Of a DNA stretch of 64,000 nucleotides, positions 4,926 through 57,497 are shown one piece after another. Both the position numbers and the translations under genes were made by a program. The notes under the pieces are model-generated. The model saw only the letters and a list, made by a program, of their open reading frames with translations. It did no database searches and was not told the origin of the DNA. Numbering within the stretch: position 1 is the first letter of the stretch; the number at the start of each line of letters is the position of its first letter. The stretch lies in the IMG/VR virus record IMGVR_UViG_3300032236_000803, positions 1 to 64,000 of that record; one strand, 5' to 3'. Origin of the DNA: a virus.

Positions 4926-6359
4926 TTAGAAATCGTATCTTGGATTCATAATAGCTTGCATCATAATTCCTTCAGGAGTAAAGGAAGACGTATCAGCCTT
5001 CAGAACAGCCTTCAGAATAGCAGGACTAAAACCAGATACCAACCCAACGCCAGAAGCATCATAACGAACAGGAACATTATCGTTAGAGTTAAGATTCCAG
5101 AATACAATTGCAGGCATAGAATATCCGGCATTTTCGTACATACGTTTAACCATCTGATACGCGCTATCGTCAAAATTAGTACAATAATTAAACTGCATAT
5201 CCGATAGAATCAATAGCATTTCTGGCATTTCTTCGTTAGGAACATTAGAATTAATAGCAGTTTCCAGAATCAAATCAAGAGCGCCATACAAATTTGTACT
5301 CATACCCCACTTAGACTTAATCATTTGTTCGCAACGATCAACTACGTTTCCGGTAAGACGAAGAATTTCTGGTGTCGTAGAGAATGTTACGAACAAATCC
5401 TTGAATTTACCAGTGTTCTTTTCAGATAGATATAACCCAAGAGATACTGAAACGTCAAGACAAGTAACTGAATTATTCTTTCCAGCAGGACAAGTCATTG
5501 ACCCGGAAACGTCTACTAAAGGTAGAATATTCGAATCACCAACAAAGTTCTCAAGAGCATTCCACTGATTAACAATCAGATCAGTTTCAGTTTTACCATA
5601 AGAATTACTTACGCCATAAGGGCTGATGATACCCTTTAGAACATCATAAGGATAAACTGCTCCAGCATTAACCTTAACAGAAGTATCGCCAGAGTTCAAC
5701 TTATTAACATAGTTAGAATAACCTACTGGATCATGCTTGTTAAACGCCTTCTTGTAACGAGCAGAAGCCAAAGAAGGAACATGACTGTAGTTAATATCTT
5801 CCCATGAATTCGAACACATCTTAGTTTCTACAACTTCGGTATTAGAAGCCAGAAACTTACGATACTGACGAGGAGTCATATTCCAATAAGTCATAATCTC
5901 AGTAGCAAGCGCAGACTTAGATGACTTTTCTCTTGGAAGCCACTTAGCAACAAGTTGATTACCTGAGCGAATACCTTCAAACAATGAATCAAATGCTTTA
6001 TTCTTGAAAGTCTTAGTTTCGAAAACCAATAGATCATCCCAACGACCAATTTCTGGAATTTTGTCCCAGATACGATTCAAGATTTCTGGATTCTTCTTTT
6101 CAAGATAGACAAGAATATCTCTGAACAGTTTACGTTCACCAGCACCACCACGAACATCGCGAGTCCAAAGAGCAATACGAGTAGCTAATTCTGGATCTTC
6201 TACAAAAGCAGAAGAGAATTGCGGAATGATATCTTTACCACGACTTGCGCCGATTTTAAAGAAAAGATTAGTTAATTCCTGACCAGAACTTTTAAAGGCT
6301 TTCATACCATTTTCAGTTCTAGTAATACGATTATCGACAGCATAAGCAAACGAATTCAT
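4926..6359 (-). CDS. Ro60-like TROVE/vWA RNA-binding protein (DUF2828 type)
   Basis: A 477-residue protein. The N-terminal half is a helical-repeat region containing motifs such as T-R-D-V-R-G-G-A-G-E-R, I-P-E-I-G-R-W-D-D-L-L and the A-K-W-L-P-R-E block, typical of TROVE domains. The C-terminal half is a von Willebrand A domain with a complete metal site D283-V-S285-G-S287, T355 and D387 (S-D-M-Q-F). This combination and the wording of the motifs match the DUF2828/TROVE family related to Ro60, a ring protein that binds Y RNAs and misfolded RNAs. I start it at the ATG at 6359 because GAGG lies six bases upstream; a GTG four codons earlier is less likely. Small RNAs with a shared terminal module flank it on both sides. 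Confidence 0.85.
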   Translation of the reverse strand: MNSFAYAVDNRITRTENGMKAFKSSGQELTNLFFKIGASRGKDIIPQFSSAFVEDPELATRIALWTRDVRGGAGERKLFRDILVYLEKKNPEILNRIWDKIPEIGRWDDLLVFETKTFKNKAFDSLFEGIRSGNQLVAKWLPREKSSKSALATEIMTYWNMTPRQYRKFLASNTEVVETKMCSNSWEDINYSHVPSLASARYKKAFNKHDPVGYSNYVNKLNSGDTSVKVNAGAVYPYDVLKGIISPYGVSNSYGKTETDLIVNQWNALENFVGDSNILPLVDVSGSMTCPAGKNNSVTCLDVSVSLGLYLSEKNTGKFKDLFVTFSTTPEILRLTGNVVDRCEQMIKSKWGMSTNLYGALDLILETAINSNVPNEEMPEMLLILSDMQFNYCTNFDDSAYQMVKRMYENAGYSMPAIVFWNLNSNDNVPVRYDASGVGLVSGFSPAILKAVLKADTSSFTPEGIMMQAIMNPRYDF

Positions 6360-6439
6360 AACATACCTCACAGGTTTACACGGTTTTAGACAAATTTAAA
6401 GTTTGTTTATTATTTCTTGCGGAAATAAACCTAATACAA

Positions 6440-16053: not shown

Positions 16054-16078
16054 AAGGGGGCTTTCGCCCCCTTTTTTT
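16054..16078 (+). terminator. Rho-independent terminator after gp32
   Basis: GGGGGC (16056-16061), loop TTTC, GCCCCC (16066-16071) and a seven-T run. The facing gene ends inside the T run, so the hairpin separates convergent transcription units. Confidence 0.9.
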
Positions 16079-18185
16079 ATAATGGTCTTACTGAATTATA
16101 TTGAGCTTTTAATAGAGTAGGTTCATTTGATCTTGCTCCTATTTCTATGCCCATAGGAGATTCGTTTGAAGTTGTTTTCCTAGCACTAGCTTTTCCTTGA
16201 CTTCCTCCTGCGCCTCCTCCTTGATTAACGACTATTGGTTGTTGTGGTTGTGGCTGTGCATTTTTTTCTTTTATGTCTGCAATATTTCTAGATATGTTAT
16301 CTATCATCAATCCTTGCGTTGCTTCGTTTTGCCCTGCGGGTTTTAATTCAGCCGTTTTTGTAGGCCCATATTTGGTAGTATTTTCAGCTTGAACTGAATT
16401 GATTTTATTAACCAATTGCGGATCATTTTGGCCTTTCGCCATACCAGAAACCAATTCTCCTCCGCTTTTTAATACTCCTTTAACGGTATTAGTAGCGGCA
16501 ACTGTTTCTCCCGCTAAAGAACCTCCTAAAGTTTGTCCAGCTTTTTGCGTCAATGGAGTTTCTGGTTTTGCAACTTTTTCAGCAGTTTCGGATTTTATTG
16601 GTCCGTAGTTAGCCATTTTTTCGGCTTCTACTGGTTTAATTTTTTCAACCAATCCAGGATCGTTTAACCCTTTCATGAATCCTATTCCAGTTTGGCCTCC
16701 TACTTTCAACAACCCTTTAACGGTATTAGTCGCAGCAACTGTTTCACCCGCTAAAGAACCTCCTAAAGTTTCTCCAGCTTTTTGCATCAACGGAGTTTCC
16801 GGTTTTGCAACTTTTGCAGAAGCAGTAGAACCGCTGGAACCATTGGATGCTGCTGCAGTATTAATTTGTTCTTCTGAATATGGGTTTTTGCCGTTTTCAA
16901 TTTTAATAATTGAAGTCATCATCTTAGCCATTACTTTGGGATCATTTACGTCTATTTGATCCGTTGGCGAAACTCCTAATTCTTTAGATACGTTATTAAT
17001 ATACGCTGCTGTATTATTTTCTGAAGGAGGTGCGAATTTACCTATCATGGAAGATACGGTGTTTATTCCTCTCTTATCGTATAATTTTAATTGATGGGAT
17101 AATGCGGATAATCCTTCTTCTGGCGTATCAAACGATGCAAATCTAGCATTTTGTCCGGCTTCTAATGATGCTCCTGGTTGATTTGCAAAATTCAAATTTC
17201 CTGGATTATTATTTCTAATTCCTCTTGGTTGATTTTTTACAGCTGGATTCACTTCAGTATTTCCAGTAATAGAATCTATACCCTTTGCTATAGATTCCCC
17301 CATTTTGTTCGTTACATTACCTATTGCTGGAATTTCATTTAATGCCTTTCCTGCAAAAAATCCTCCAGCTAATGCTCCTAATGGTAAACTGATCCTAGTC
17401 AAAACGGTAGAAAGTCCTTCTAACAAAGTTGGTAATCTAGCTAATATAGGTCTTAGCGTTTTACTGATATTTTCAACGAACGGTTCTATCATTTTTGATA
17501 AATTTTTAAATAAACTTTCCATAGTTTCCGGAAGTTTTTTTAAAGCGTTTCCTATATTTTTAATAGATTTTGCTAAAGTCTCTCCTAAACTAGCTATCAT
17601 TTTTTTCAAAGAATCGGCTAAATTTTTTAATACTGAAGACCCTGATTTTTTGGAATTTGGACGAGTAGATGGTTTATTAGGTTTCTGTTTTTTATCGGAT
17701 TTAGATTTTTCTTTATTATTATCAAGATCAGTCAAATCCAAAGCAGGATTTCTAAAAGGAGCATCTAACCTTTCTATTTTCAAATGTTTTACATTAAGTT
17801 CGTTTATATCCAGCTTTTCTATTTTCAAATGTTTTATATTGTCTAATATAATTTGTTCTTTATTATCCTTTATTTCAGTTTGAAAATCTTCTGGCTTTGC
17901 GTCTAATAAATCTTGTTGGATAATCTCTTTCTTTAATTCGCTTCCTACAAATTTGACTAAATTTTGATTAATAGAATTCAAAACATTTTGGATGTCTTTA
18001 AGAGCTTTTAACGTTTTATCGTTTTCTTTAGCGTAAGTAGATATAAATTTATTATCATTAGCTGAAGCAGTATTAGTACCTACAAACCCAAATGAACCCA
18101 AAATCCTTTGTGATGCCATTTCTCGGAAATCTCTATTATCCGATTCTGGATTTTTGTTATATTTTAGTTGCGGTAAATTCGCCAT
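16077..18185 (-). CDS. Baseplate hub or tail protein with lytic domain
   Basis: A 702-residue virion protein. The N-terminal 200 residues are helical, with repeated H-L-K-I-E-K/R-L-D segments and a basic linker. Residues about 190-300 include amphipathic and Ala/Gly-rich membrane-like segments. A domain starting R-G-I-R-N-N-N-P-G-N-L (about residue 325) is typical of phage tail-associated peptidoglycan hydrolases. It is followed by two tandem copies of a roughly 80-residue unit (V-A-K-P-E-T-P-L-x-Q-K-A-G...). The gene is downstream of gp26/gp51, where T4-like phages place hub genes, so a role in penetrating the wall during injection is likely. I cannot assign it to a single T4 gene. Confidence 0.6.
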   Translation of the reverse strand: MANLPQLKYNKNPESDNRDFREMASQRILGSFGFVGTNTASANDNKFISTYAKENDKTLKALKDIQNVLNSINQNLVKFVGSELKKEIIQQDLLDAKPEDFQTEIKDNKEQIILDNIKHLKIEKLDINELNVKHLKIERLDAPFRNPALDLTDLDNNKEKSKSDKKQKPNKPSTRPNSKKSGSSVLKNLADSLKKMIASLGETLAKSIKNIGNALKKLPETMESLFKNLSKMIEPFVENISKTLRPILARLPTLLEGLSTVLTRISLPLGALAGGFFAGKALNEIPAIGNVTNKMGESIAKGIDSITGNTEVNPAVKNQPRGIRNNNPGNLNFANQPGASLEAGQNARFASFDTPEEGLSALSHQLKLYDKRGINTVSSMIGKFAPPSENNTAAYINNVSKELGVSPTDQIDVNDPKVMAKMMTSIIKIENGKNPYSEEQINTAAASNGSSGSTASAKVAKPETPLMQKAGETLGGSLAGETVAATNTVKGLLKVGGQTGIGFMKGLNDPGLVEKIKPVEAEKMANYGPIKSETAEKVAKPETPLTQKAGQTLGGSLAGETVAATNTVKGVLKSGGELVSGMAKGQNDPQLVNKINSVQAENTTKYGPTKTAELKPAGQNEATQGLMIDNISRNIADIKEKNAQPQPQQPIVVNQGGGAGGSQGKASARKTTSNESPMGIEIGARSNEPTLLKAQYNSVRPL

Positions 18186-18189
18186 TTTA

Positions 18190-18383
18190 TTATCCGTATT
18201 GTTGTTTTTGTCTTTCTAAACGATCATTTGTTTCTTTAATGTAATGTTCCAATTGCATAACATATAATTCTCTTTCCCACGGAATCATATTTTCTAAATC
18301 AGCAAGATTATATTTGTGGTGCTGCATCAATGCAAAATTAGTTCTAAAATAATTTGCTAAGTTATCATGACAAAAAGTTAAGC
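18190..18383 (-). CDS. 51: gp51-like baseplate hub assembly sequence, -1 frame of gp26
   Basis: An open frame of 64 codons with no start codon before an internal TTG-ATG (ATG at 18327-18325). Its sequence Y-F-R-T-N-F-A-L-M-Q-H-H-K-Y-N and E-N-M-I-P-W-E-R-E-L-Y-V matches the gp51 family, the catalyst of T4 hub assembly. The conserved part begins before the first ATG, so independent initiation would truncate it to 45 residues. The frame overlaps the end of gp26 and is reached by a -1 shift at T TTT TTA. Either a frameshift fusion or a short separate protein is made; the fusion is favoured. Confidence 0.7.
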
Positions 18384-19097
18384 TAAAAAATTCTCAAGTC
18401 CCTCCATGGTAATTTTATGCTCAAATCCGCATTTAGCACAAACTATGTCTATTTCTTTTTTTAATTTTGGTAAATGGTTAAAATGTTCTTCTATCTTTTT
18501 AAATTGCTCGTTATTTAAACCGTCTAACCAATTCGTCAATTCAGATTTAGTGAATTCGTCTCTGTAATAAACTTTTTCGGAATCAAATACGTAATCTACG
18601 CAATCAGCTATAATATCTGTTGTCATTTCTAATATATCTGAATCTTCTTTAAAATTCTTTACTATATCAAAATTAGGATGTTTCATTTTAAGACCAAGTT
18701 CTGGTTCTAACTGGATAATATCATTATAATCATTTAAATCGACATCTACTTCTAAAATATTGATAGAAGTTTCCATCTGATTACCGCATTCTTCATTTTC
18801 GATATTATTTTTACAAACATATCTCGGTTTAATTACTTCTCCAATAGACCTAGCTCTTAATTGTAAGAAAAAGAATTCAGTATCTGTTGTGGATAATGAA
18901 TCAATATCAATTTTACTTTTACAGCAATTTTTTATGACTTCTTTAATATTGTCGTTTATAAAAATAGGATCATCAGATTCTAAAGCAATCATTAAAATCT
19001 TTTGTTCTTTCACCGTAAAAGGTCTGTATTTAACTTTTTCGTTTTTAATAGGTAAAGTCAATTCATACGTAGGTGCATTAATTATAGGCAAACTCAT
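18378..19097 (-). CDS. 26: gp26-like baseplate hub subunit
   Basis: A 239-residue homologue of T4 gp26. It begins with a P-x-Y-E-L-T-L-P-I-K-N-E-K-V-K-Y-R-P-F-T-V-K-E-Q-K-type block and continues with F-L-Q-L-R-A-R-S-I-G-E. Two Cys pairs, C95/C104 and C220-x2-C223, could form a zinc site, as the family has. gp26 is part of the T4 hub assembly pathway. Its last sense codons carry GGAGGG, nine bases and T TTT TTA, so a fraction of ribosomes may continue in the gp51 frame. Confidence 0.88.
   Translation of the reverse strand: MSLPIINAPTYELTLPIKNEKVKYRPFTVKEQKILMIALESDDPIFINDNIKEVIKNCCKSKIDIDSLSTTDTEFFFLQLRARSIGEVIKPRYVCKNNIENEECGNQMETSINILEVDVDLNDYNDIIQLEPELGLKMKHPNFDIVKNFKEDSDILEMTTDIIADCVDYVFDSEKVYYRDEFTKSELTNWLDGLNNEQFKKIEEHFNHLPKLKKEIDIVCAKCGFEHKITMEGLENFLA
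18384..18405 (-). promoter_or_regulatory. Candidate -1 ribosomal frameshift signal
   Basis: Within the end of gp26, on the minus strand: Shine-Dalgarno-like GGAGGG (18405-18400), a 9-nt spacer, and slippery heptamer T TTT TTA (18390-18384) in the correct phase, three codons before the zero-frame stop counting from the start of TTT. The layout copies E. coli dnaX, where an SD-like sequence about 10 nt upstream stimulates -1 slippage. No clear downstream hairpin is seen. Confidence 0.65.
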
Positions 19098-19108: not shown

Positions 19109-19639
19109 TTATTTTTGTAAATATCTGTATGCAAAAGTGACCATTAATTTATGAACTTCATTTGCTGCTGCCCAATCAAGTTTCATAGGATGTACTGAAA
19201 TAGGAAACGCTTCAAATAATCTCGCTTTATATGACTCTTTACCGGCTAAATCATATTGAATTATTTCTACCGTTCCTCTATAATTATCTTTGTATTCAAA
19301 ATCAAATTGTACTCCTTCTGGAGTATTCGTAGCAGCATTGGACATTATATCCATCCAAGAATCAAATAATTCTTTCTCTCTCATATCATCAGAACATATA
19401 AAGGTAAGATTGACCTTTTCATAAAAATTCTGCACTGGAAAATATTGCACAGGACCGTACGTTTTCTGTTCAACTAAAGAAAACGTTCTTGACGGCAACT
19501 CAGAACCTTCGCATCTAAAACTCAAAGAACGAGTATCAAACGGGCTTATTATAGGACCAGTTATATTAACGGTGAAATTATATGGTCTTGCGACTTCTTT
19601 AGGAAAACTGTTTAGGAATTCGGATATATTTGCGACCAT
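19109..19639 (-). CDS. Tail-tube-like protein (T4 gp19 family, gp54 candidate)
   Basis: A 176-residue protein with the fold pattern of the T4 gp19 tail-tube family: A-R-P-Y-N-F-T-V near the start, S-F-R-C-E-G-S-E-L-P-S-R-T-F, then a conserved Y-K-D-N-Y-R-G-T-V and a closing F-P-I-S-V-H-P-M-K-L-D-W. The main tail tube gene usually lies next to the sheath gene gp18, which is not here. Beside gp26 and gp48 this copy is more likely gp54, the baseplate protein that starts tube assembly, which shares the fold. Exact identity uncertain. Confidence 0.75.
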   Translation of the reverse strand: MVANISEFLNSFPKEVARPYNFTVNITGPIISPFDTRSLSFRCEGSELPSRTFSLVEQKTYGPVQYFPVQNFYEKVNLTFICSDDMREKELFDSWMDIMSNAATNTPEGVQFDFEYKDNYRGTVEIIQYDLAGKESYKARLFEAFPISVHPMKLDWAAANEVHKLMVTFAYRYLQK

Positions 19640-40225: not shown

Positions 40226-40456
40226 ATGACAATACTTAAAGTGCAGGGTACTCATCTGATAAGGGACACCAATAGCGGTGCCCTTATCAACAGGGATATG
40301 AATGGCCTACAAGAATATAATAAAAAAAGACAAATGATGGCCAATCAAAAAGAAGAAATAAATACTATTAAAACAGATGTCGATAACATCAAAAAAGATT
40401 TGTCTGAAATAAAGCAAATGATGCTACAACTATTAGATAAAGGTCCAAATGTCTAA
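40226..40456 (+). CDS. Small coiled-coil structural-region protein
   Basis: A 76-residue protein starting M-T-I-L-K-V-Q-G-T-H-L-I-R-D-T. The first 35 residues resemble a short conserved protein found in T4-like phages behind the DUF4815 gene. The second half is a clear heptad coiled coil (I-N-T-I-K-T-D-V-D-N-I-K-K-D-L). It overlaps the next fibre gene by eight bases. It may be a trimerising connector or chaperone; function unknown. Confidence 0.65.
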   Translation: MTILKVQGTHLIRDTNSGALINRDMNGLQEYNKKRQMMANQKEEINTIKTDVDNIKKDLSEIKQMMLQLLDKGPNV

Positions 40457-43211
40457 CTTTACTCCAGCGCAACAATTTAATATTCTCAACTATGCCAATA
40501 CGTTTGGTGATTGGGTAGTAACAACTAACGCTTTAGTTCTGCAAAATAACGATCTTGCTGCTAATAACTTTACTAAAGCATCAGGAACGCTTTATCTTTC
40601 TGATCCATCTCTTGCTTTGCAAGCTAATACTGCTTCAATTTTCCAGAGTTCTGTACAGGTTATCGGCGTTGGTTCATATGCTTATATACAGAACAATTTA
40701 ACTGTTGGTGCTCCGGGTACAACCAGTAACGGACAAGTATATTTAAATTATCTTGGTGCTGGTCCTGCGCTAACTTCATACGGTTCTATTTTCGCAGACG
40801 GGGCAAACACAGGACTTCTTGTAGCGAATACCGCAAATATTGGCGGTAAATTATACGTATCTAATACTGCATCGTTTTCTAATACAGTAACAATATATGG
40901 TACTGCATACGTTGCGAATAATCTATTCTCTTCTAATACGGTATATGCCGATAAAATCCAAGGCAATACCAGCGTAAATACTTTAGTATTAACTGCGCTG
41001 ACTGAAGTTTATACTAATCTGTTGCAGTCTAATACTGCTGTAAGTACGAATTACCTAGTTTCTGATAGAGTTCAAGCTAATACAAGCGTAACAACAACTA
41101 GTGTTTATGCGTCTAATAGCGTAACTGCAATGACTGTATCTGCTGTAAGTAATGTATTTACAAATTCTATACAATCTAACAGCAGCATTAATACAACCAA
41201 TTCTATTGCAAATGTTGTACAAGCTAATTCGTATGTAAATACTGCTACATTAATAGCAACAAGTAATGTCTTCACTAATACATTACAAGCAAATGTTTCA
41301 GTTAATACTGCATCAGTTTATGCTAACAATATTCAAGCTAATACCATAAGTACGCTTGCGTTCATTGCAAACACTATACAATCGAATACTTCTGTTAATA
41401 CTGCATCATTGACTGTAACTGGTATTGCTACTATCGGTAATGTAATGACTAATATTGTTACTGCAAACTCAGCGGTAATTGGGGCTGGTGGATTAACAAT
41501 TGGCGGTAATTTCGTAATAAGTGGCGCAACAGTTTTCAATTCTCCTACTTTTACAATAAGCGCAAACAGTCCAAATCCTCCTGTAATATTAAATCCTGGA
41601 TATGCTGTTTATAGATCAACCGCTAATGCTTTAATCCGTTGGAATGAAGCTAATACTTATTGGGATATGAACGATGTCAATAGCGGAGCATTCTATAGAG
41701 TATTAACTGACAAATATTTAAGTAATTCTGGCGTATTGAATAGTTCTGGGAATGTTGCAACTTCTTCTGCGTTATATTATGCTAATAATTGGTTACAGGC
41801 AAACGATTCATTAACTTTATCTAATGCTGTAGCTTACGCAAACGCAGCTAATCTTTGGTTACAGGCAAATGACTCATTGACATTGGCAACTGCCCAAACG
41901 TTTTCAAGTAATGCCAATAACATAACTTCTGGTATTTTATCTTTAACACGATTACCTACTTCTGGCGTTGTTGCTGGCGTTTATGGTAATACTGTTAGTA
42001 TACCTACTGTTACGGTTGACCAATACGGAAGAGTAACTGCAGTAAGTAATAACGCAGTATCAACCACGATCAATTTAGCAGGTTCTATTGGAACTGGATC
42101 TGTTGCTGGCGGCGGGACATTAACTTTATCATCTTCTAATACAGCAATAACTAATGTAACTGCCTCTGGATCTACGTTAACAATTAATCCTCAATTATCA
42201 GGAGTTGTTTCAGGATCATATGGTAATGCTACGACTATACCAACAATTACAGTTGATCAATATGGTAGAGTTTTATCAGTTGCAAATAATGCAGTATCAA
42301 CCACGATCAATTTAACAGGTAATTCTGGAACTGGTTCTGTTGCTGGTGGTAATACTTTAATACTAAGTTCATCAAATTCTTCAGTAACAAATGTAGCTGC
42401 TTCCGGAAATACGTTAACAATAAATCCGCAATTATCTGGTGTTACTCCCGGTTCGTATATAATATCTAGTATAACTGTTGACCAATATGGTCGCGTAACT
42501 AGCGCAAGTTCTGGATCTGTTGCTGGCGTAAGTATAAACAATGATACTACATCAGCTTATACTTTCTATCCTTTATTATCGCTTACTACTACTGGAAGTT
42601 TGGCAACAACCAATACTTCAAGTACGAAGTTATCGTTTACTCCGTCCACAGGTATATTATCTGCAACAGGATTTTCTGGATCGGGAGCAGGGTTAACAGG
42701 AACTGGTATTAATTTCACAGCCAATACTGTGGCTAATATCACAGGAACTCAAGTTACTAATGCTCTTGGATATACTCCTTATAATTCAAGCAATCCAAAT
42801 GGATATCTTGCAAATACTTCATCTGCTTCATTTTCAGGGTTAGCTGTAACTGGACAAACTACTTCAACAAAAGGCTACAGAGAAGGTGTGGTTGCAGTCG
42901 GTACAGTAACAGGAGCAACCAATTTAGATTTATCGCAAGGAAATATATTTACAATTACGTTGGGCGCAAGCGGTGTAGCATTTACATTCACAAATCCTCC
43001 GGCATCTGGCGTTGCTTGTACAATAACGTTGATAATAACACAAGACGGTACTGGATCTAGAACGTTTGGATCAATTACTGGTTCTGTTTGGACAGATGGT
43101 AATAAACCAGTTTTAACAACCACTGCTAGTAAAACGGATATGTTATCATTAATGACTGTTAATGGCGGCAGTACTTATTATGGCTCATTCGCAGGAGCAA
43201 ATTTCGGATAA
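40449..43211 (+). CDS. Tail fibre protein
   Basis: A 920-residue fibre. Residues about 150-350 comprise a repeat alternating short beta pieces with N-T-A-S-V or Q-A-N-T-S-V, and two copies of the A-N-x-W-L-Q-A-N-D-S-L-T-L unit shared with 29579-32398 lie around 440-480. Then come two near-identical roughly 80-residue blocks (V-D-Q-Y-G-R-V-T/L...S-N-N-A-V-S-T-T-I-N-L). The C-terminal region ends in a beta sandwich common in fibre tips. It probably binds the host surface. Confidence 0.75.
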   Translation: MSNFTPAQQFNILNYANTFGDWVVTTNALVLQNNDLAANNFTKASGTLYLSDPSLALQANTASIFQSSVQVIGVGSYAYIQNNLTVGAPGTTSNGQVYLNYLGAGPALTSYGSIFADGANTGLLVANTANIGGKLYVSNTASFSNTVTIYGTAYVANNLFSSNTVYADKIQGNTSVNTLVLTALTEVYTNLLQSNTAVSTNYLVSDRVQANTSVTTTSVYASNSVTAMTVSAVSNVFTNSIQSNSSINTTNSIANVVQANSYVNTATLIATSNVFTNTLQANVSVNTASVYANNIQANTISTLAFIANTIQSNTSVNTASLTVTGIATIGNVMTNIVTANSAVIGAGGLTIGGNFVISGATVFNSPTFTISANSPNPPVILNPGYAVYRSTANALIRWNEANTYWDMNDVNSGAFYRVLTDKYLSNSGVLNSSGNVATSSALYYANNWLQANDSLTLSNAVAYANAANLWLQANDSLTLATAQTFSSNANNITSGILSLTRLPTSGVVAGVYGNTVSIPTVTVDQYGRVTAVSNNAVSTTINLAGSIGTGSVAGGGTLTLSSSNTAITNVTASGSTLTINPQLSGVVSGSYGNATTIPTITVDQYGRVLSVANNAVSTTINLTGNSGTGSVAGGNTLILSSSNSSVTNVAASGNTLTINPQLSGVTPGSYIISSITVDQYGRVTSASSGSVAGVSINNDTTSAYTFYPLLSLTTTGSLATTNTSSTKLSFTPSTGILSATGFSGSGAGLTGTGINFTANTVANITGTQVTNALGYTPYNSSNPNGYLANTSSASFSGLAVTGQTTSTKGYREGVVAVGTVTGATNLDLSQGNIFTITLGASGVAFTFTNPPASGVACTITLIITQDGTGSRTFGSITGSVWTDGNKPVLTTTASKTDMLSLMTVNGGSTYYGSFAGANFG

Positions 43212-43237
43212 TATATACTTTTATTTTATGGTATAGT

Positions 43238-44815
43238 ATGAAGAATCAAGTAGAATCTATTTTGATAGTGGGTGGAGGCAGCTCTGGTTGGATGACTGGA
43301 GCTGCTTTAGTAAAACATTTACCAAATGTTAAAATTTCTTTGGTTGAATCTCCTGATATTAAAACAATAGGAGTTGGAGAAAGTACGTTAGGACACATAA
43401 ATGAATTTTTTCATTTTTTAGGATTGCGAGATGAGGATTGGATGAAGCATTGTAATGCTACATACAAAACTTCAATTAAGTTTACTGATTTTAGAGACAA
43501 CCCAAAAGATAAACCTTATGTGTTTCATTATCCGTTTGGGCTTTGGGACTTAACAGACAAACCAAATGGGTTAATGGATTGGTTTGATTATAAAGCAAAA
43601 TATCCAGAAACTCCCTGTGAAAATTTCGCAGAATTTTATCATGACGCAGTATTAATGACTGATCATAATAAAATGACATATAACCAAAATGGCGCAATAA
43701 GGAATTTTAATCCATTCAATGATGTGGCTTATCATATGAATGCTGCGTTATTTGGTGAGTATTTAAGAGATTACGTTTGTAAGCCAAATGGTTTAAATCA
43801 TATATTGGCTACAGTTAAAGGCGCCAGTAAAGACGAATCCGGATGTATTTCAAAGATACATACAGATAAAGGGGATTTAACTGCCGATCTCTATATAGAT
43901 TGTACTGGATTCAAATCATTTCTATTAGAAGAAATTATGGGAATTCAGTTTGAATCTTTTGATGACTTATTAATGAATGATAGAGCTATAGCAGCTCCTA
44001 TTCAATACATTGATAAAAATAAAGAAATGGAATGTGTTACCAATTGTACTGCCATTGAAAATGGATGGGTATGGAATACCCCTTTATGGGATAGGATTGG
44101 AACTGGGTATGTTTATTCCAGTCAATTTGTATCAGATGATGATGCGTTAGGACAGTTTAAAAAACATTTGAAGTCGAATCGTATGATTTGTCAAAATGAT
44201 GCTAGAATAGATACAGCGGAATTTAGGCAACTTAAAATCAGACATGGTAAACACGAAAAGGCTTGGGAGAAAAATGTTGTTGCAGTAGGGTTATCAAATG
44301 GTTTTGTTGAACCTTTAGAATCAACAGGATTATTGATGACTCATGAAGCAATTATAAAATTAGTAAACATTTTAAAGGCAAGAAATAATTATTATAATAA
44401 ACTTGATGTTGATAGTTTTAATTTTTCTTTAAATAACCAAATAGATGGATTTAAAAATTTTATAGCTTTACATTATGCATTAAGTAAAAGGGATGACACG
44501 GAATATTGGAGACACGTCACGAATAATATTTCGTATAAAAATACAGGAATATTTGAATTTTTTTCGCATTCAATGATCAATTCTAGACGGTTTGCATCTA
44601 ATGTAACTGAAGGATTATTTTATATAGCAGCTGGTATGGGATACAATCCTACTGATAGTAGTAGATTAGATTTTCATAACATGGTATATAATGATGATCC
44701 ATATATTCCAGAAAAAGTTATGGATGAATGGTTAAAACATAAAAGACTCGTTATGAAAATTATTGATAGACTACCTACTCATTATGAATTTTTGAAGAAC
44801 AATATATATAAATAA
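43238..44815 (+). CDS. Flavin-dependent tryptophan-halogenase-like enzyme
   Basis: A 525-residue member of the tryptophan halogenase family. The FAD-binding G-G-G-S-S-G-W (12-18) opens the protein. The catalytic lysine position is K77 in A-T-Y-K-T-S-I-K-F. W277-V-W279-N-T-P282 corresponds to the family's W-x-W-x-I-P. The E-P-L-E-S-T-G segment (358-364) holds the catalytic glutamate. These enzymes chlorinate, brominate or iodinate aromatic substrates; a cyanophage member (VirX1) iodinates varied substrates. The Ile-to-Thr change in the W-x-W motif is unusual. A flavin reductase would have to come from the host. Confidence 0.88.
   Translation: MKNQVESILIVGGGSSGWMTGAALVKHLPNVKISLVESPDIKTIGVGESTLGHINEFFHFLGLRDEDWMKHCNATYKTSIKFTDFRDNPKDKPYVFHYPFGLWDLTDKPNGLMDWFDYKAKYPETPCENFAEFYHDAVLMTDHNKMTYNQNGAIRNFNPFNDVAYHMNAALFGEYLRDYVCKPNGLNHILATVKGASKDESGCISKIHTDKGDLTADLYIDCTGFKSFLLEEIMGIQFESFDDLLMNDRAIAAPIQYIDKNKEMECVTNCTAIENGWVWNTPLWDRIGTGYVYSSQFVSDDDALGQFKKHLKSNRMICQNDARIDTAEFRQLKIRHGKHEKAWEKNVVAVGLSNGFVEPLESTGLLMTHEAIIKLVNILKARNNYYNKLDVDSFNFSLNNQIDGFKNFIALHYALSKRDDTEYWRHVTNNISYKNTGIFEFFSHSMINSRRFASNVTEGLFYIAAGMGYNPTDSSRLDFHNMVYNDDPYIPEKVMDEWLKHKRLVMKIIDRLPTHYEFLKNNIYK
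44807..44814 (+). promoter_or_regulatory. T4-type late promoter
   Basis: Exact TATAAATA overlapping the end of the halogenase gene, 33 bases before the gene at 44848. It would start the adhesin-oxygenase transcript. Confidence 0.6.
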
Positions 44816-45154: not shown

Positions 45155-46510
45155 ATGCCAGGGTTTTTCAGAACATTAGCTCCAGCAGGATCGCAGACGC
45201 ATAATTCTGGTACATCCGGTTCATGGGCAGCACCGTTTCGCGTAAGAACCGTTAATATTTCAGTATTAGGCCAACCGGGAAATTCAGGTAATCCTGGAAA
45301 TCCTGGAAATGGCGGATCAGGAGGAAGCGCAGGTAATCCTGGAAATTCAGGTAATCCTGGAAGCCAAGGTAATTCTGGAAATCCAGGAGGACATGCTGGT
45401 GGCGGCGGTGGCGGCGGTGGCGGTGGCGGTGGTGTAGCGCACGTTGTAGTTAGAAATTACCCATATGGTAATTGTAGGGCTACTAATTCTATAGGACAAA
45501 TTAGTGGAAATTACGGGTGTGGTTCTGGCGGGCACTGCAGTAATGCTCCATATGGCGGAGGATGGGGAGGTAGCGGAGCGTCACACCAAGGCCAAGGGAA
45601 CAATTTCGGATGTTACGGAAAAGCTGGTGTGGGCGGTTCTGGCGGAAGCCACGGAAGAGCAGGAACTTTTTGCAGCAATTGTCATTCTCACTGCGGATTT
45701 AGTGGAAATCCAGGGACTGGCGGTCAACCAGGTGCTGCTGGTAATTCGGGAAATTACGGAGCTAGTGGGTCTAATGGTAATAGCGGTAATGGAGGAGGAT
45801 CAGGAAATCCAGGTAATGCAGGATCAGCAGGATCAACAGGAAATAGAGGAGCCAACACTAGTTTTAATATAGTAAATCAGACATATGTTGGTAGCGGGGG
45901 TTCTGGAGGTTCAGCAGGAAACGCAGGCAATCCTGGAAATGCAGGCAATCCAGGTTATGCTGGAAACGGCGGTTCTGCTGGAAACGGAGGCGCTGGAGGA
46001 AACGGAGGCAGCGGAGGATACAGCGTAACAGGAAATGCTGGCGGTGGCGGTAGTGGCATTGGCTTTCCTGGTAATCCAGGCCAACAAGGAGGAAGTATTA
46101 ATGGAAACTGGGGAGGCGGTGGACACGCAAATGCTGGCGTATCTTGGAATTCTGGTTCTGGCGGCGGAAGTGGCGGTGCTGGTGGACATGCTGGCGCAGG
46201 TATATGGTGTTTTCTTTATGGAAATGGACTTAACGCAGGTGGTACTGGCGGTCCAGGCGGTGCTGGCGGTGCTGGTGGGGGAACTTATGGTAATGGAGGT
46301 AACGGAGGTTCGCCAGGTAATTCAGGTTCAGGAGGAAATCCAGGAGGAGCTGGTTCTAACGGAAATGCTGGATCTGGAGCAGGTTCAGGAGGAAGCGGAA
46401 GCCCTGCATCAACATCTAATTATGGTTCACAAAATATAACATACAGAGTAGCCTACCCATATAGCGTAGCGCCATCTGGTTCAGTAACAATAAGTTGGAG
46501 TAGACAATAA
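45155..46510 (+). CDS. Glycine-rich collagen-like adhesin
   Basis: A 451-residue protein. A 40-residue N-terminal domain (M-P-G-F-F-R-T-L-A-P-A-G-S) is followed by about 370 residues of Gly-rich sequence in which triplets Gly-Asn-Pro, Gly-Asn-Ala, Gly-Ser-Gly and Gly-Asn-Gly alternate, with a run of about 13 Gly near residue 90. Several Cys and His lie at about 107-190. The C-terminus returns to a beta-type sequence (Y-S-V-A-P-S-G-S-V-T-I-S-W-S-R). Such Gly-rich tips form collagen-like or polyglycine-II sheets, as in T-even gp38 adhesins, and bind the receptor. Pro falls mostly in the Y position of the triplets, and two prolyl-hydroxylase-type genes follow. Confidence 0.8.
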   Translation: MPGFFRTLAPAGSQTHNSGTSGSWAAPFRVRTVNISVLGQPGNSGNPGNPGNGGSGGSAGNPGNSGNPGSQGNSGNPGGHAGGGGGGGGGGGGVAHVVVRNYPYGNCRATNSIGQISGNYGCGSGGHCSNAPYGGGWGGSGASHQGQGNNFGCYGKAGVGGSGGSHGRAGTFCSNCHSHCGFSGNPGTGGQPGAAGNSGNYGASGSNGNSGNGGGSGNPGNAGSAGSTGNRGANTSFNIVNQTYVGSGGSGGSAGNAGNPGNAGNPGYAGNGGSAGNGGAGGNGGSGGYSVTGNAGGGGSGIGFPGNPGQQGGSINGNWGGGGHANAGVSWNSGSGGGSGGAGGHAGAGIWCFLYGNGLNAGGTGGPGGAGGAGGGTYGNGGNGGSPGNSGSGGNPGGAGSNGNAGSGAGSGGSGSPASTSNYGSQNITYRVAYPYSVAPSGSVTISWSRQ

Positions 46511-48783: not shown

Positions 48784-51700
48784 ATGGCAAATACAGCTCC
48801 AATTCAATTTATAAGGTCATTTACGCCAGGTAAAGTACCTGATGCGGCAAATGTAGCAGTTGGCGGTCTTGCTTTAAATCTAGCAGATAGAATAATTTAT
48901 TCTAAAGATCCAACTGGTAATGTGATTTATTTCATTGATCCAGATGTTAATTCTCTGGCAAACATTGCGAACTCATTATTAGCTGCAGCTAATTCTATTA
49001 CCCCTGCATATACGCAAGCCAATTCAGCATATGCTCAGGCCAATTTAGCGCTGTCTGTAGGTCAACAAGCATATAATACTGCAAATATAGTTTGGAAAGA
49101 AGCTAATTCTGCTTGGATTGAAGCAAACAACGCTTATAATACCGCTAACGCTGCATGGATTCAGGCTAATTCAGCATATAACATAGCAAATTCAATATGG
49201 TCTGAAGCAAATAGTGCTTACATACAAGCAAATAACGCATATAATTTAGCGAGTTACACCTATAGTTTTGCCGCTAATGCTTATATATTTGCATCAAGTA
49301 TAGCTAATAATGCATACAACACTGCTAATTCTGCTTGGTTTACTGCTAACACAGCAAACGCAACTGCTAATATAGCATTAACAAATTCAAAATCAGCATA
49401 TAACACAGCCAATGCTGGATATAATGTTGCTAATCTAGCTTTTGCTTCTGCTAATTCAGCTTGGAATACTGCTAACGCTGGATATAACGTAGCAAATCTT
49501 TCATTCTCGGTTGCCAATGCTGGATTCAATACCGCTAACGCTGGATACAATGTTGCTAATCTAGCTTTTGCTTCTGCTAATTCAGCTTGGAATACTGCTA
49601 ACACTGCTAATGGTACAGCTAATATTGCACTCAGTACAGCACAAGCTGGATACAACAACGCTAATAATGCATATAATAGGGCTAATACAGCATACGCTCA
49701 AGCAAATAGCGCATACACATATGCTTCTAATACTGCAAATAGTGCATTTATTTCAGCTAACTCTGCTTGGAATACAGCTAACGCTGGATATAACGTAGCG
49801 AACCTTTCTTTTGCTGTTGCTAATGCTGGATTCAATACGGCTAATGCTGGATATAATGTAGCTAATCTTTCCTATGTTGTAGCAAATTCAGGTTGGAATA
49901 CAGCTAACGCTGGATACAATGTTGCTAATTTATCGTTTGTTGTCGCTAATTCTGCTTGGAATACTGCAAATACTGCAAACGGTACAGCTAATATTGCTCT
50001 AAGTGTTGCTCAATCCGGATACAATACTGCCAATGCTGGTTATAACACTGCAAATGCAGCGTACAACGTAGCTAATTTATCGTTCAACGTAGCAAATAGT
50101 GCTTGGAATACTGCTAACGCTTCATACGGAGTTGCTAATCTTTCTTATGTTGTAGCAAATAGTGCATGGAATACAGCTAACGCTGCATATGGAGTTGCTA
50201 ATTTATCGTTTGTTGTCGCTAATTCTGCTTGGAATACAGCTAACACCGCTAACGGTACAGCTAATATTGCACTTAGCGTTGCTCAATCGGCATATGGACA
50301 AGCCAATAATGAACCAAAGGGCACAGCTGCGTATGGCGTAGCTAATCTAGCGTTTGCTTCTGCTAACTCTGCTTGGAATACAGCTAACGCAGGATATAAT
50401 GTTGCTAATCTATCATTTGTTGTCGCTAATTCTGCTTGGAATACAGCTAACACCGCAAACGGTACAGCTAATATTGCTTTAAGCGTTGCTCAATCAGCAT
50501 ATAATAATTCAAATTCTGCATTTAATACAGCTAATGCTGGATATAATGTTGCTAATTTATCGTTCAACGTAGCTAACAATGCGTACAATACAGCTAATGC
50601 TGCTTGGGCTGGCGCAAACGCTTCTTATACATATGCATCAAGTACCGCTAACAATGCGTACAATACAGCTAATGCTGCTTGGAGCACGGCTAATTCTAAA
50701 TTTAATACTTCTGGCGGAACTATAACTGGTCCAGTTGTCATTAGTTCATCGTTAAATGTTACAGGAAACGTATATTTTGGAGGTAATGTTACTACGATTA
50801 ATGCTAATAATTTAGCTATCGAAGATAACATGATCTATTTAAACAATGGATCAAACGTTGCTAATCCAGATTTAGGGTTTGCTGGTAATTATAATGACGG
50901 CATTTACCATCATGCTGGTTTTTTCAGAAAAGCATCTGATGGAATTTGGAGAGTTTTTGATAGTTATTTACCAGAACCAGATGCGTCCCCGTACATTGAC
51001 ACGAGTAATTCGTCATTCAGGATTGCTGATTTCCAAGCTAATACAGTATACGCAAATACATTAATAATTTCTTCTAATACGTTAATTACCAATTTAAATT
51101 CAACGTTATTAGGTAATCAACCAAGAAGTTATTACGAAAATTTATCGATTGCTGCGTACGCTACTGGGAATTCTGCATATAATACCGCAAATGCAGGGTA
51201 CAACGTTGCTAATCTCTCATTCAACGTAGCTAATTCTGCGTACAATACAGCTAACGCGGGATACAATGTTGCTAACTTATCTTTTGCAGTTGCCAACGCA
51301 GCATTTAATACAGCCAATGCAGGGTACAATGTTGCTAATCTTTCTTTCAACGTAGCTAATTCAGCTTGGAACACTGCGAATACAGCGAACGGTACTGCTA
51401 ATGTTGCATTAAGTGTTGCTCAATCAAGTTACAATACAGCTAACTCTGGTTATAATGTCGCCAACCTATCTTTTAACGTTGCGAATTCAGCTTGGAATAC
51501 TGCAAATACTGCTAATGGTACTGCTAATATAGCATTAAGCGTTGCTCAATCAAGTTACAATACAGCTAACGCTGGATACAACGTTGCTAATTTAGCATTT
51601 AATTCTGCTAATAACGCATATAGTTACGCGTCAAGTACAGCAAACAACGCTTACATCACCGCGAATTCAGCTTGGGATACTGCTAACACTGCTAACGGTA

Positions 51701-53334
51701 CTGCAAATGTAGCATTAAGCGTTGCGCAATCAAGTTATAATACCGCCAATGCAGGTTATAACGTTGCTAATCTTTCGTTTAACGTAGCTAATTCAGCTTG
51801 GTTTACTGCGAATACTGCTAACGGTACTGCTAACATAGCATTAACAAATGCATCATCAGCGTACAATACTGCCAACGCCGGATACAATGTTGCTAATCTG
51901 TCATTCAATATTGCAAATTCAGCTTGGTTTACTGCGAATACTGCTAACGGAACAGCTAACATTGCGTTGTCTGTTGCTCAGGCAGGATACAATTTAACAA
52001 ATCTTTCGTTTAACGTAGCTAACTCTGCTTGGAATACTGCTAATACTGCTAACGGCACGGCTAACGTTGCATTAAGCGTTGCGCAATCTGGATACAATAC
52101 TGCCAACGCAGGATATAATGTAGCCAATCTATCGTTTGTTGTAGCAAATAACGCTTGGTTTACCGCTAACACAGCTAACGGAACAGCTAACATTGCATTA
52201 AGCGTTGCTCAAGCAGCATATAATCAAGCTAATACAGGCGGCGGTAATACAGTATATGCTGCCTATAACCAAGCAAATGCGGCATATTTGACTGCTAATA
52301 CTGCGAACGGTACAGCTAATATTGCATTAAGCGTTGCTCAAGCAGCATATAATCAAGCTAATACAGGCGGTGGTAATACAGTATATGCTGCTTATAATCA
52401 AGCAAATATTGCATATTTAACTGCCAACACTAAAGTTTACAATTTCAGACAAAATACTGCTCCAACGTCAGCAAATACTAGTGATACTTGGACAAATATT
52501 GATACAGGAGTTATATACGAAAATTGGGGAAATACATCAAATCCTGTTTGGGCAGAATTTGGTCCAACTGGAGTTATGTCTAATTCTGCTCCTGGTATAT
52601 TTTCCGCAATAAGCATTACGTCTGCAAATGGCATATATTCTAACGGACAGATAATAACAAATTATCTACCTACAACGACAACTGGGGCAGCAATACAAAT
52701 TACTTCCGCCAATACAAAAGGCGGTACTGGTTATGCGGATTTTTTACAATTTACAAACCTCTCTGGTGGCGTAACCAATCCGAATAAATGGATTCGTTTA
52801 GATTCTATTGGAAATTTACAAATTGTTAATAGTGCATATCAATCAACATCATTGTCGTTGTCCGATGGAGGAGATTTAACGCTTGCTGGTAATACAACAG
52901 TTAATGGTATAGCTGCTGGATATGCTCCGAATCGTCCTGCATTCCGTATAACAGGTAATGGCGGTTCGATTAGTGCTACTACAACAGTTGCTGGCGGATA
53001 CATGGTTGTCGATTTTAATCAAGGTAGTTATTTGAATACGACAACAGGTATATTTACTGCTCCAGTTGCTGGTTTATATCAAGTCAATGTTGTGGTTAGA
53101 ACACAATCAAACGCTAATCCAACGATTAACCAAATTATCATTAGAAAAACTACATCGGGTAATACTGTTACATCAATCATTATGGTTGAATTTGGAGTTA
53201 ATACTTCGATGAATCACGCTGGCGGTTCTACAATAGTAAAACTGTCGGCTGGAGATACTTTAAAATTTGACGTAACTAGTGGTACAATTAGTTTCGACGG
53301 TAATGATAATTGGTCAGTAGCATACATAGGTTAA
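48784..53334 (+). CDS. Giant repeat-rich tail fibre with C1q-like tip
   Basis: A 1516-residue fibre. After a short N-terminal domain (about 1-70), it has hundreds of residues of a degenerate repeat, N-T-A-N-A-G-Y-N-V-A-N-L-S-F, alternating with N-S-A-W-N-T-A-N-T-A-N-G-T-A-N-I-A-L-S-V-A-Q, which predicts a long trimeric helical shaft. A globular module near 630-780 (D-L-G-F-A-G-N-Y-N-D-G-I-Y-H-H) interrupts the shaft and is shared with the fibre at 57498. The last about 130 residues have the pattern of a C1q/TNF-like head (T-G-I-F-T-A-P-V-A-G-L-Y). It is the probable long tail fibre. Confidence 0.85.
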   Translation: MANTAPIQFIRSFTPGKVPDAANVAVGGLALNLADRIIYSKDPTGNVIYFIDPDVNSLANIANSLLAAANSITPAYTQANSAYAQANLALSVGQQAYNTANIVWKEANSAWIEANNAYNTANAAWIQANSAYNIANSIWSEANSAYIQANNAYNLASYTYSFAANAYIFASSIANNAYNTANSAWFTANTANATANIALTNSKSAYNTANAGYNVANLAFASANSAWNTANAGYNVANLSFSVANAGFNTANAGYNVANLAFASANSAWNTANTANGTANIALSTAQAGYNNANNAYNRANTAYAQANSAYTYASNTANSAFISANSAWNTANAGYNVANLSFAVANAGFNTANAGYNVANLSYVVANSGWNTANAGYNVANLSFVVANSAWNTANTANGTANIALSVAQSGYNTANAGYNTANAAYNVANLSFNVANSAWNTANASYGVANLSYVVANSAWNTANAAYGVANLSFVVANSAWNTANTANGTANIALSVAQSAYGQANNEPKGTAAYGVANLAFASANSAWNTANAGYNVANLSFVVANSAWNTANTANGTANIALSVAQSAYNNSNSAFNTANAGYNVANLSFNVANNAYNTANAAWAGANASYTYASSTANNAYNTANAAWSTANSKFNTSGGTITGPVVISSSLNVTGNVYFGGNVTTINANNLAIEDNMIYLNNGSNVANPDLGFAGNYNDGIYHHAGFFRKASDGIWRVFDSYLPEPDASPYIDTSNSSFRIADFQANTVYANTLIISSNTLITNLNSTLLGNQPRSYYENLSIAAYATGNSAYNTANAGYNVANLSFNVANSAYNTANAGYNVANLSFAVANAAFNTANAGYNVANLSFNVANSAWNTANTANGTANVALSVAQSSYNTANSGYNVANLSFNVANSAWNTANTANGTANIALSVAQSSYNTANAGYNVANLAFNSANNAYSYASSTANNAYITANSAWDTANTANGTANVALSVAQSSYNTANAGYNVANLSFNVANSAWFTANTANGTANIALTNASSAYNTANAGYNVANLSFNIANSAWFTANTANGTANIALSVAQAGYNLTNLSFNVANSAWNTANTANGTANVALSVAQSGYNTANAGYNVANLSFVVANNAWFTANTANGTANIALSVAQAAYNQANTGGGNTVYAAYNQANAAYLTANTANGTANIALSVAQAAYNQANTGGGNTVYAAYNQANIAYLTANTKVYNFRQNTAPTSANTSDTWTNIDTGVIYENWGNTSNPVWAEFGPTGVMSNSAPGIFSAISITSANGIYSNGQIITNYLPTTTTGAAIQITSANTKGGTGYADFLQFTNLSGGVTNPNKWIRLDSIGNLQIVNSAYQSTSLSLSDGGDLTLAGNTTVNGIAAGYAPNRPAFRITGNGGSISATTTVAGGYMVVDFNQGSYLNTTTGIFTAPVAGLYQVNVVVRTQSNANPTINQIIIRKTTSGNTVTSIIMVEFGVNTSMNHAGGSTIVKLSAGDTLKFDVTSGTISFDGNDNWSVAYIG
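50644..51162 (+). repeat. Fibre module duplicated at 58386-58901
   Basis: A roughly 170-codon module, S-K-F-N-T-S-G-G through N-L-S-I-A-A-Y, recurs almost unchanged in protein sequence in the fibre at 57498-61589 (nucleotides about 58386-58901). Nucleotide copies differ mainly at third positions. This marks a duplicated or recombining receptor-binding domain. Confidence 0.8.
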
Positions 53335-53337
53335 ACG

Positions 53338-54519
53338 ATGTCTATAATTCAATTTCCAAGTAATCCATTTTTATACCAAACATTTACAGTCGGTAGTAAG
53401 ACTTGGATATGGAACGGGTATGCTTGGGATTTACAAACAGCCAATAATTCAAGTTTAACTACAAACATTACAGCAGCTTGGAATACGGCTAATACTGCAA
53501 ATGCTACTGCTAACATTGCATTAAGCGTTGCGCAAGCAGCATATAACCAAGCGAATATTGGCGGTGGTGGGGGAAGCAGCACAGCTAATGCAGCATACAG
53601 CGTTGCTAATACTGCATATTTAACAGCTAACTCTGCTTGGTTTACTGCGAATACGGCTAATGCTACTGCTAATATAGCTCTATCCGTTTCTCAATCCGCG
53701 TATAACAATTCTAATGCGGCATTTAATACAGCCAATGCAGGATACAACGTAGCAAATCTTTCATTCAATGTAGCTAATTCAGCTTGGAACACTGCAAATA
53801 CAGCGAACGGTACTGCTAATATTGCATTAAGTGTTGCTCAATCTGGATATAATAATTCTAATGCGGCATTTAATACAGCCAATGCAGCGTATAACGTTGC
53901 TAATTTAGCGTTTGTTGTAGCAAACTCTGCTTGGTTTACTGCGAATACAGCAAACGCTACTGCTAATATCGCCCTATCCATTTCTCAATCTGCATATAAC
54001 CAAGGAAACGCTGCATACTCCCAAGCTAATTCTAAAATATATGCATTTTTCCAGAATACGGCTCCAACTTCAGCAAATTCTCATGATTTATGGATAAACA
54101 ATGATACCGGAAGCGTTTATGAAAATTTCGGAAATACTTCCGCTCCTATATGGGCAGAATTTGGTCCAACAGGCATATCTATCAGTTCAACCACGACTAG
54201 AATACAAACTATTTCTGATTCAACTTCTATAACAATTAATACAGATATAACTGATATTGCTATACAAGTAAATACGCAAGCAGCAGGAACTTTGACAATT
54301 AATTCTCCAACTGGATCTTTTATCGAAGGACAAAAATTTATATTAAGACTGAAATGTACCAATTCACAAACATTATCTTGGAATCCTATATTTGTTGGAT
54401 CATCGGACGTGGCTCTTCCATCAACTACAACTGGAAGTTCAAAAACGGATTATCTTGGATTCGTATATAACGCTATAGACAGTAAATGGAACTTATTGGC
54501 AAAGAATTTTGGTTATTAA
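53338..54519 (+). CDS. Tail fibre protein with shared N-terminus
   Basis: A 393-residue fibre. Its N-terminus (Q-F-P-S-N-P-F-L-Y-Q-T-F-T-V-G-S-K-T-W-I-W-N-G) closely resembles that of the fibre at 57498, suggesting a common attachment module. The middle is the A-N-T-A-N-A-T-A-N-I-A-L-S-V shaft repeat. The C-terminal about 110 residues are a beta-type domain (T-I-N-S-P-T-G-S-F-I-E-G-Q-K-F). It starts directly after the giant fibre. Confidence 0.75.
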   Translation: MSIIQFPSNPFLYQTFTVGSKTWIWNGYAWDLQTANNSSLTTNITAAWNTANTANATANIALSVAQAAYNQANIGGGGGSSTANAAYSVANTAYLTANSAWFTANTANATANIALSVSQSAYNNSNAAFNTANAGYNVANLSFNVANSAWNTANTANGTANIALSVAQSGYNNSNAAFNTANAAYNVANLAFVVANSAWFTANTANATANIALSISQSAYNQGNAAYSQANSKIYAFFQNTAPTSANSHDLWINNDTGSVYENFGNTSAPIWAEFGPTGISISSTTTRIQTISDSTSITINTDITDIAIQVNTQAAGTLTINSPTGSFIEGQKFILRLKCTNSQTLSWNPIFVGSSDVALPSTTTGSSKTDYLGFVYNAIDSKWNLLAKNFGY

Positions 54520-54536
54520 TTGGCGGTATTTTTTAG

Positions 54537-54737
54537 ATGAACGAATTACATATTTTAGAAAATGGATGGTATAAAATAGATTTTGAAGCTGGTATTTATC
54601 CTTACATATGCAAAGATTCTATAATTTTGCCTCCTGAAAAATACAACCAATTATCAAAAGATGATATTAATGCATTAATATCAGAAAAATATAATATTTG
54701 GATTGATTACATTAACAACTTAAATTCTGAAAATTAA
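54537..54737 (+). CDS. Small putative fibre chaperone
   Basis: A 66-residue acidic protein (M-N-E-L-H-I-L-E-N-G-W-Y-K-I-D-F) with no recognised domain. It sits between two fibre genes, two bases before the next start, in the place where T4-like phages often encode short assembly helpers. Function unknown. Confidence 0.5.
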   Translation: MNELHILENGWYKIDFEAGIYPYICKDSIILPPEKYNQLSKDDINALISEKYNIWIDYINNLNSEN

Positions 54738-54739
54738 TT

Positions 54740-57463: not shown

Positions 57464-57464
57464 T

Positions 57465-57472
57465 TATAAATA
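57465..57472 (+). promoter_or_regulatory. T4-type late promoter
   Basis: Exact TATAAATA, 25 bases before the fibre gene at 57498. Confidence 0.7.
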
Positions 57473-57497
57473 ATAAAAACCACAGAGTATAGTATAA

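What the first reader, a model, noticed from the sequence alone, without database searches (positions are those of the whole stretch)
18190..18405. Candidate dnaX-like -1 frameshift fusing gp26 to gp51
Seen: at the end of gp26, GGAGGG, nine bases, T TTT TTA in phase, then zero-frame stop. The -1 frame continues 64 codons encoding a gp51-like sequence whose conserved part starts before any start codon. Known: T TTT TTA is a strong slippery site, and an SD-like sequence about 10 nt upstream stimulates -1 slippage in dnaX. In T4, gp26 and gp51 are separate hub-assembly proteins. Inference: the phage makes both gp26 and a gp26-gp51 fusion in a set ratio.
Basis: partly seen in the sequence, partly recalled or inferred. 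Interest (0 to 1): 0.78.

Follow-up and report, generated by a model that had tools for sequence, protein, structure and literature searches.

The report
Phage tail chaperone made by frameshifting
A gene end in this uncultured T4-related phage carries a conserved "slippery" signal that should make some ribosomes shift back one base and add a tail to gp26, so one gene gives a short and a long tail-assembly chaperone, a trick known from phage lambda and already reported for T4-like phages.

Summary
On the minus strand, gp26 (18378-19097) ends GGAGGG-9 nt-T TTT TTA-GCT-TAA. The -1 frame runs on for 66 codons from the heptamer, encodes gp51, and has no start codon before codon 21. Of 92 loci read, 91 keep an in-phase T TTT TTN there, with gp51 homology in the -1 frame from the shifted codons. 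The heptamer's synonymous T's are invariant (90/90; 56.7 and 64.7 expected). GGAGG is selected: 32 loci against 4.7 expected. -1 programmed frameshifting is the best explanation (about 0.92). The function is best read as a tail assembly chaperone (TAC): the gp26 model matches HK97 TAC (Z 7.5) and YqbN (Z 7.2), next hit 2.3, and gene order is tail tube, gp26/51, tape-measure-like, as in lambda. T4 gp26 and gp51 are paralogues: gp51 is a gp26 domain with the same tail fused in frame, so T4 makes both forms from two genes. TACs of T4-like phages are published (Vladimirov et al. 2022, seen only through citations): a new member of a known kind. Stimulators vary: the window has GGAGGG and no hairpin, while about 30% of relatives have strong 3' hairpins.

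The parts
18378..19097 (-). gp26 / TAC-N, zero-frame product, 239 aa
   Evidence: PF12322 T4_baseplate E 6.8e-57; phrog_150 baseplate hub E 6.5e-60; AlphaFold2 model pLDDT 88 matches HK97 TAC 2ob9 Z 7.5 over residues 1-85
18400..18405 (-). GGAGGG, Shine-Dalgarno-like stimulator 9 nt 5' of the heptamer
   Evidence: GGAGG within the 18 nt upstream in 32 of 90 relatives against 4.65 +/- 2.0 in synonymous resampling; GAG 45/77 at this Glu against 391/1824 elsewhere, p 7e-12
18384..18390 (-). T TTT TTA slippery heptamer, in phase with gp26
   Evidence: in-phase T TTT TTN in 91 of 92 loci; preceding third base T 90/90 (56.7 expected) and first Phe codon TTT 90/90 (64.7 expected)
18378..18380 (-). 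gp26 stop codon TAA, 10 nt after the first base of the heptamer
18190..18393 (-). -1 frame open stretch encoding the gp51 tail (TAC-C); joined to gp26 by -1 frameshift gives the long form
   Evidence: phrog_634 baseplate hub assembly catalyst E 7.8e-26, and the end of phrog_150 E 4e-6; dN/dS about 0.11-0.23 among the window and its nearest relatives; no start codon before codon 21
19109..19639 (-). tail-tube-like protein upstream in the same gene block
   Evidence: PF23849 Phage_TTP_2 E 6.2e-8; phrog_45 tail tube E 7.4e-30
16077..18185 (-). probable tape measure protein with an internal lysozyme/transglycosylase-like domain, directly downstream
   Evidence: phrog_2276 tail length tape measure E 4e-39, phrog_873 endolysin E 3e-49, phrog_7182 tail injection transglycosylase E 1e-37

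Best explanation
The locus is a tail assembly chaperone gene read in two ways. Most ribosomes finish gp26 (the short form, TAC-N). A minority, helped by the upstream GGAGGG pairing with 16S rRNA, slip back one base on T TTT TTA and read 64 more codons, giving gp26-gp51 (the long form, TAC-NC). By analogy with lambda gpG/gpGT, many short and few long forms would coat the tape measure protein made by the next gene, and the extra helical domain would recruit tail-tube subunits. Shown here: the signal, its conservation, selection on the heptamer and the SD-like site, coding constraint on the -1 frame, a TAC-like fold and lambda-like gene order. Inferred: that slippage happens, its ratio, and the binding partners.
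For: Heptamer and frame in the window. 91/92 loci with in-phase T TTT TTN and gp51 homology in the -1 frame from the FF codons. Invariant synonymous positions. No ATG/GTG/TTG in the first 14 codons of the -1 frame in 37 of 89 loci, no ATG in 61, and a start with an SD match of 4 nt or more in only 3. SD-like selection. Purifying selection on the -1 frame. The part of the gene block most similar at DNA level to cyanophage S-PM2 is 18260-18406, the heptamer plus gp51. TAC structural match. The same tail is fused in frame to a gp26-like domain in T4, Phi1, Aes508 and Cronus gp51, so a joined protein exists as an ordinary gene product in related phages. Lambda precedent: many gpG per gpGT, T binds the tube protein (PMC5009743). 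TAC assignment of T4-like phages as cited in PMC10885494 and PMC12846349.
Against: No protein or reporter data. No downstream RNA structure in the window (z +1.98 and +0.85). Ackermannviridae relatives (Ag3, VP-1, KpnM-20) keep gp51 in the -1 frame without a canonical heptamer, and KVP40, Cr30, Moby, phiM9, P10VF, Ag3 and VP-1 have an ATG overlapping the gp26 stop, so gp51 may also be made by re-initiation in some lineages. The TAC fold match covers one domain, with Z below 8.
Confidence: 0.92

Rival explanations
1. gp51 is a separate protein started by re-initiation or translational coupling at the gp26 stop, and the poly-T run is incidental.
For: KVP40, Cr30, Moby, phiM9, P10VF, Ag3 and VP-1 have an ATG overlapping the gp26 stop in the gp51 frame; several records annotate gp51 that way.
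Against: In the window there is no ATG, GTG, TTG, CTG or ATH codon before codon 21, though conservation begins at codon 1. 37 of 89 loci have no ATG/GTG/TTG in the region. Selection on the synonymous T's of the heptamer would be unexplained.
Confidence: 0.05
2. RNA polymerase slippage on the T run makes a mixed mRNA pool, so the long form arises by transcriptional rather than ribosomal slippage.
For: A T run sits at the junction in nearly every locus.
Against: The run is only six T, shorter than is usual for transcriptional slippage (general knowledge). What is conserved is a phased two-codon heptamer with an SD-like site at fixed spacing, which acts on ribosomes.
Confidence: 0.02
3. A sequencing or assembly indel splits one gp26-gp51 gene.
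For: Some phages (T4-type gp51) have the two parts in one frame.
Against: The same -1 arrangement is in 91 of 92 records, isolates and metagenomes alike.
Confidence: 0.005

Closest known systems
Tail assembly chaperones of T4-like phages, gp26 (TAC-N) and gp51 (TAC-NC) (Vladimirov, Gautam and Davidson 2022, Virology 566:9-15; known here only through PMC10885494 and PMC12846349)
   Same: Homologous proteins; short and long forms share the N-terminal domain; poly-T slippery sites in TAC-N genes of T4-like phages are attributed to that paper by PMC12846349.
   Different: T4, Phi1, Aes508 and Cronus have two divergent genes, with the long form fused in frame; the window has one gene and a -1 shift, with T TTT TTA rather than the commoner T TTT TTC.
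Lambda gpG/gpGT -1 frameshift
   Same: Short chaperone plus low-level -1 extended form, placed between tail tube and tape measure genes.
   Different: Different heptamer (lambda G GGA AAG, from memory), no sequence similarity shown, SD-like stimulator here, T4-type phage.
E. coli dnaX -1 frameshift cassette
   Same: Upstream SD-like sequence about 10 nt 5' of a two-codon slippery heptamer.
   Different: Heptamer T TTT TTA instead of A AAA AAG; no downstream stem-loop in the window; the product is an extended, not a truncated, protein.
Vandenendeviridae / Andersonviridae TAC locus, GTTTTT motif (PMC12846349)
   Same: Conserved poly-T -1 frameshift at the end of TAC-N, with the C-part annotated as a separate hypothetical protein.
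   Different: Different phage families; sequence relation not tested here.

Membership tests
Programmed -1 ribosomal frameshift site | X XXY YYZ heptamer in the zero frame near the end of the first gene | tested here: met
   T TTT TTA at 18384-18390
Programmed -1 ribosomal frameshift site | Heptamer conserved beyond amino-acid need | tested here: met
   91/92 loci; synonymous T's invariant 90/90
Programmed -1 ribosomal frameshift site | Stimulatory element (SD-like upstream or structure downstream) | tested here: met
   SD-like GGAGGG, under synonymous selection across relatives; downstream structure absent in the window. That it stimulates was not measured.
Programmed -1 ribosomal frameshift site | Frameshift product exists and depends on the heptamer | not testable with these tools
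   needs a reporter or mass spectrometry
Tail assembly chaperone, T4-like (gp26/gp51) | TAC-N domain of PF12322 | tested here: met
   E 6.8e-57
Tail assembly chaperone, T4-like (gp26/gp51) | gp51 C-terminal domain homologous to the end of T4 gp51 | tested here: met
   phrog_634 E 7.8e-26; profile of the -1 ORFs hits T4-type gp51 residues about 197-250, E 7e-9 to 1e-13
Tail assembly chaperone, T4-like (gp26/gp51) | Structural similarity to known TACs | tested here: met
   2ob9 HK97 TAC Z 7.5 and 3klu YqbN Z 7.2 over 84-85 residues, next hit Z 2.3; Foldseek alone weak, E 1.7
Tail assembly chaperone, T4-like (gp26/gp51) | Position between tail tube and tape measure genes | tested here: met
   tail-tube-like 19109-19639, tape-measure-like 16077-18185
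Tail assembly chaperone, T4-like (gp26/gp51) | Binds tape measure and tube protein, absent from the virion | not testable with these tools
   needs biochemistry
dnaX-type cassette | A AAA AAG heptamer with downstream stem-loop | tested here: not met
   T TTT TTA and no stem-loop; only the SD-like part is shared

The most novel reading that the evidence does not exclude
Frameshifting is the ancestral way in which T4-type phages make their two tail chaperones. The stimulators turn over between lineages (SD-like site only in the window's clade, different hairpins in others, a start codon at the stop in others), and T4 itself escaped recoding by duplicating the gene and fusing one copy in frame.
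Probability: 0.45. Interest if true: 0.55.

Novelty: new member of a known kind. Interest (0 to 1): 0.36.

Why it matters
It gives a sequence-level account of why marine T4-like phages seem to have a gp51 of only about 20% of T4's length (noted without explanation in the passages of PMC3037559 that I read): the missing 200 residues are gp26 itself, joined by frameshift. It also qualifies the review statement that G-T frameshifting is conserved in long-tailed phages "except T4" (PMC5009743). In the records opened here gp51 is often annotated from a late start codon or missed, so the survey can correct annotation.

Tried and rejected
Downstream hairpin in the window: none (z +1.98 for 64 nt, +1.0 for 101 nt; +0.85 for 55 nt); pseudoknots were not tested. 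Inverse link between SD strength and hairpin across loci: not seen. A solved relative by sequence: none. Foldseek in PDB gave no significant hit; the TAC match came from VIA-align on Foldseek's list. NCBIfam: no informative hit. The key prior paper (Virology 566:9-15) is not held, so its exact claims about frameshifting T4-like phages could not be read; the novelty call rests on two papers that cite it.

Full report
What is there. The window is 64 kb of a 91,190-base virus record, 34.7% GC, with T4-type structural genes. On the minus strand, gp26 (18378-19097, 239 aa) ends ATG GAG GGA CTT GAG AAT TTT TTA GCT TAA. GGAGGG (18400-18405) lies nine bases before T TTT TTA (18384-18390), which is in phase; one codon later comes the stop. 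Shifted by -1 at the heptamer, reading goes on FFSLTFCHDNLANYFRTNFALMQHHKYNLADLENMIPWERELYVMQLEHYIKETNDRLERQKQQYG. No ATG, GTG, TTG, CTG or ATH codon occurs before codon 21.

Identity of the parts. gp26 is PF12322 (E 6.8e-57) and phrog_150. The -1 stretch is phrog_634, the gp51 family (E 7.8e-26), and also hits the end of phrog_150. The gene before is tail-tube-like. The gene after (702 aa) matches tape measure and tail transglycosylase families.

Chance and conservation. In-phase T TTT TTN occurs 15 times in 18,881 codons of the window's long ORFs, and only this one is near a gene end; about 0.004 is expected in the last five codons of one given gene. Relatives were taken from isolates and from IMG/VR. 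Of 92 loci read, 91 have in-phase T TTT TTN (69 TTC, 18 TTT, 4 TTA), with the stop 7 to 31 and mostly 10 bases after its first base, and the -1 frame carrying gp51 from the first shifted codon. Third-base T before the Phe codons is found in 90 of 90 distinct loci against 56.7 expected from the same genes' codon use, and TTT for the first Phe in 90 of 90 against 64.7. Rows are related by descent, so these are not independent trials, but isolates as far apart as Vibrio, Caulobacter, Pseudomonas, Rhizobium and cyanobacterial phages share the site. dN/dS in the -1 frame among the window and its two nearest relatives is 0.11-0.23. The DNA stretch most similar to phage S-PM2 in the whole gene block is 18260-18406, which is this junction and gp51.

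Start codons. Of 89 loci with enough sequence, 61 have no ATG in the first 14 codons of the gp51 frame, 37 have no ATG, GTG or TTG, and only 3 have a start with an SD match of 4 or more. KVP40, Cr30, Moby, phiM9, P10VF, Ag3 and VP-1 do have an ATG overlapping the gp26 stop, so re-initiation remains open there. The Ackermannviridae read (Ag3, VP-1, KpnM-20) lack the heptamer.

Stimulators. GGAGG upstream occurs in 32 of 90 loci against 4.65 +/- 2.0 when codons are resampled synonymously; Glu is GAG in 45 of 77 against 391 of 1824 elsewhere. The window has no downstream structure. 28 of 95 loci have downstream folds with z below -2, such as a long hairpin in S-PM2 (z -4.7) and one in S-WAM1 (z -7.5), with differing shapes. 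So the upstream site and downstream hairpins seem to be used in varying mixtures, and the window's clade has the SD-like site.

T4. Genes 26 and 51 are divergent in T4, Phi1, Aes508 and Cronus. Phi1 gp51 itself is PF12322 (E 1.4e-43), its first 200 residues match gp26 (E 8e-14), and its last 55 match the -1 ORF profile (E 5e-11; T4 gp51 3e-8). On a tree the gp26 and gp51 N-domains of these phages are each one clade and sit together (99/97) apart from the frameshift phages (unrooted, long branches). T4 therefore makes the short and long forms from two genes. This explains the short gp51 of cyanophages and marine vibriophages noted in PMC3037559.

Function. The gp26 model (pLDDT 88) gives the HK97 tail assembly chaperone (Z 7.5) and YqbN (Z 7.2) as the only clear matches. 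Gene order and the short/long pair match lambda gpG/gpGT, where the tail of the long form binds the tube protein (PMC5009743). I therefore read gp26 and gp26-51 as TAC-N and TAC-NC. Binding and ratio are inferred.

What is known. PMC10885494 and PMC12846349 cite Vladimirov et al. 2022 for TAC genes of T4-like phages: for T4-like phages that carry a short gene plus a fused long gene, and for poly-T slippery sites in T4-like TAC-N genes. I could not read that paper. The kind is thus known; the window is a new member, with the rarer T TTT TTA. The stimulator survey and the synonymous-site tests are additions that I did not find in the papers searched.

Noticed in passing
window 43199-43240 (+): The tail-fibre-like gene 40449-43211 ends in an in-phase A AAT TTC, and its -1 frame is open straight into the tryptophan halogenase ORF at 43238. 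Probably chance; conservation not tested.
   Followed up: partly
window 43238-44815 (+): Tryptophan halogenase (PF04820, E 2e-105) inside the tail-fibre region of a phage.
   Followed up: no
window 48784-61589 (+): Very long repetitive fibre-like proteins with a NTANAGYNVANLSF-type repeat shared among three ORFs (48784-53334, 53338-54519, 57498-61589).
   Followed up: no
window 45155-46510 (+): Glycine/asparagine-rich collagen-like protein, 451 aa (weak PF01391).
   Followed up: no
window 4926-6371 (-): DUF7788/DUF2828 protein (E 2e-46, 4e-27), which by eye looks like a Ro60/vWA-type RNA-binding protein, in a phage.
   Followed up: no
window 7231-8619 (-): PurD-like ATP-grasp protein (GARS_A and GARS_C).
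   Followed up: no
L104, L105, L013 junctions: Ackermannviridae keep gp51 in the -1 frame but without an X XXY YYZ heptamer; KpnM-20 also lacks a start codon at the stop, so how it makes gp51 is unexplained.
   Followed up: partly
L108 (S-CREM2) 1739 onward: The phage with the longest cyanomyovirus tail (about 418 nm, PMC10665884) has a 1565-aa gene after gp26/51, longer than in S-PM2 (1167 aa) or P-HM2 (610 aa), in keeping with a tape measure role.
   Followed up: partly
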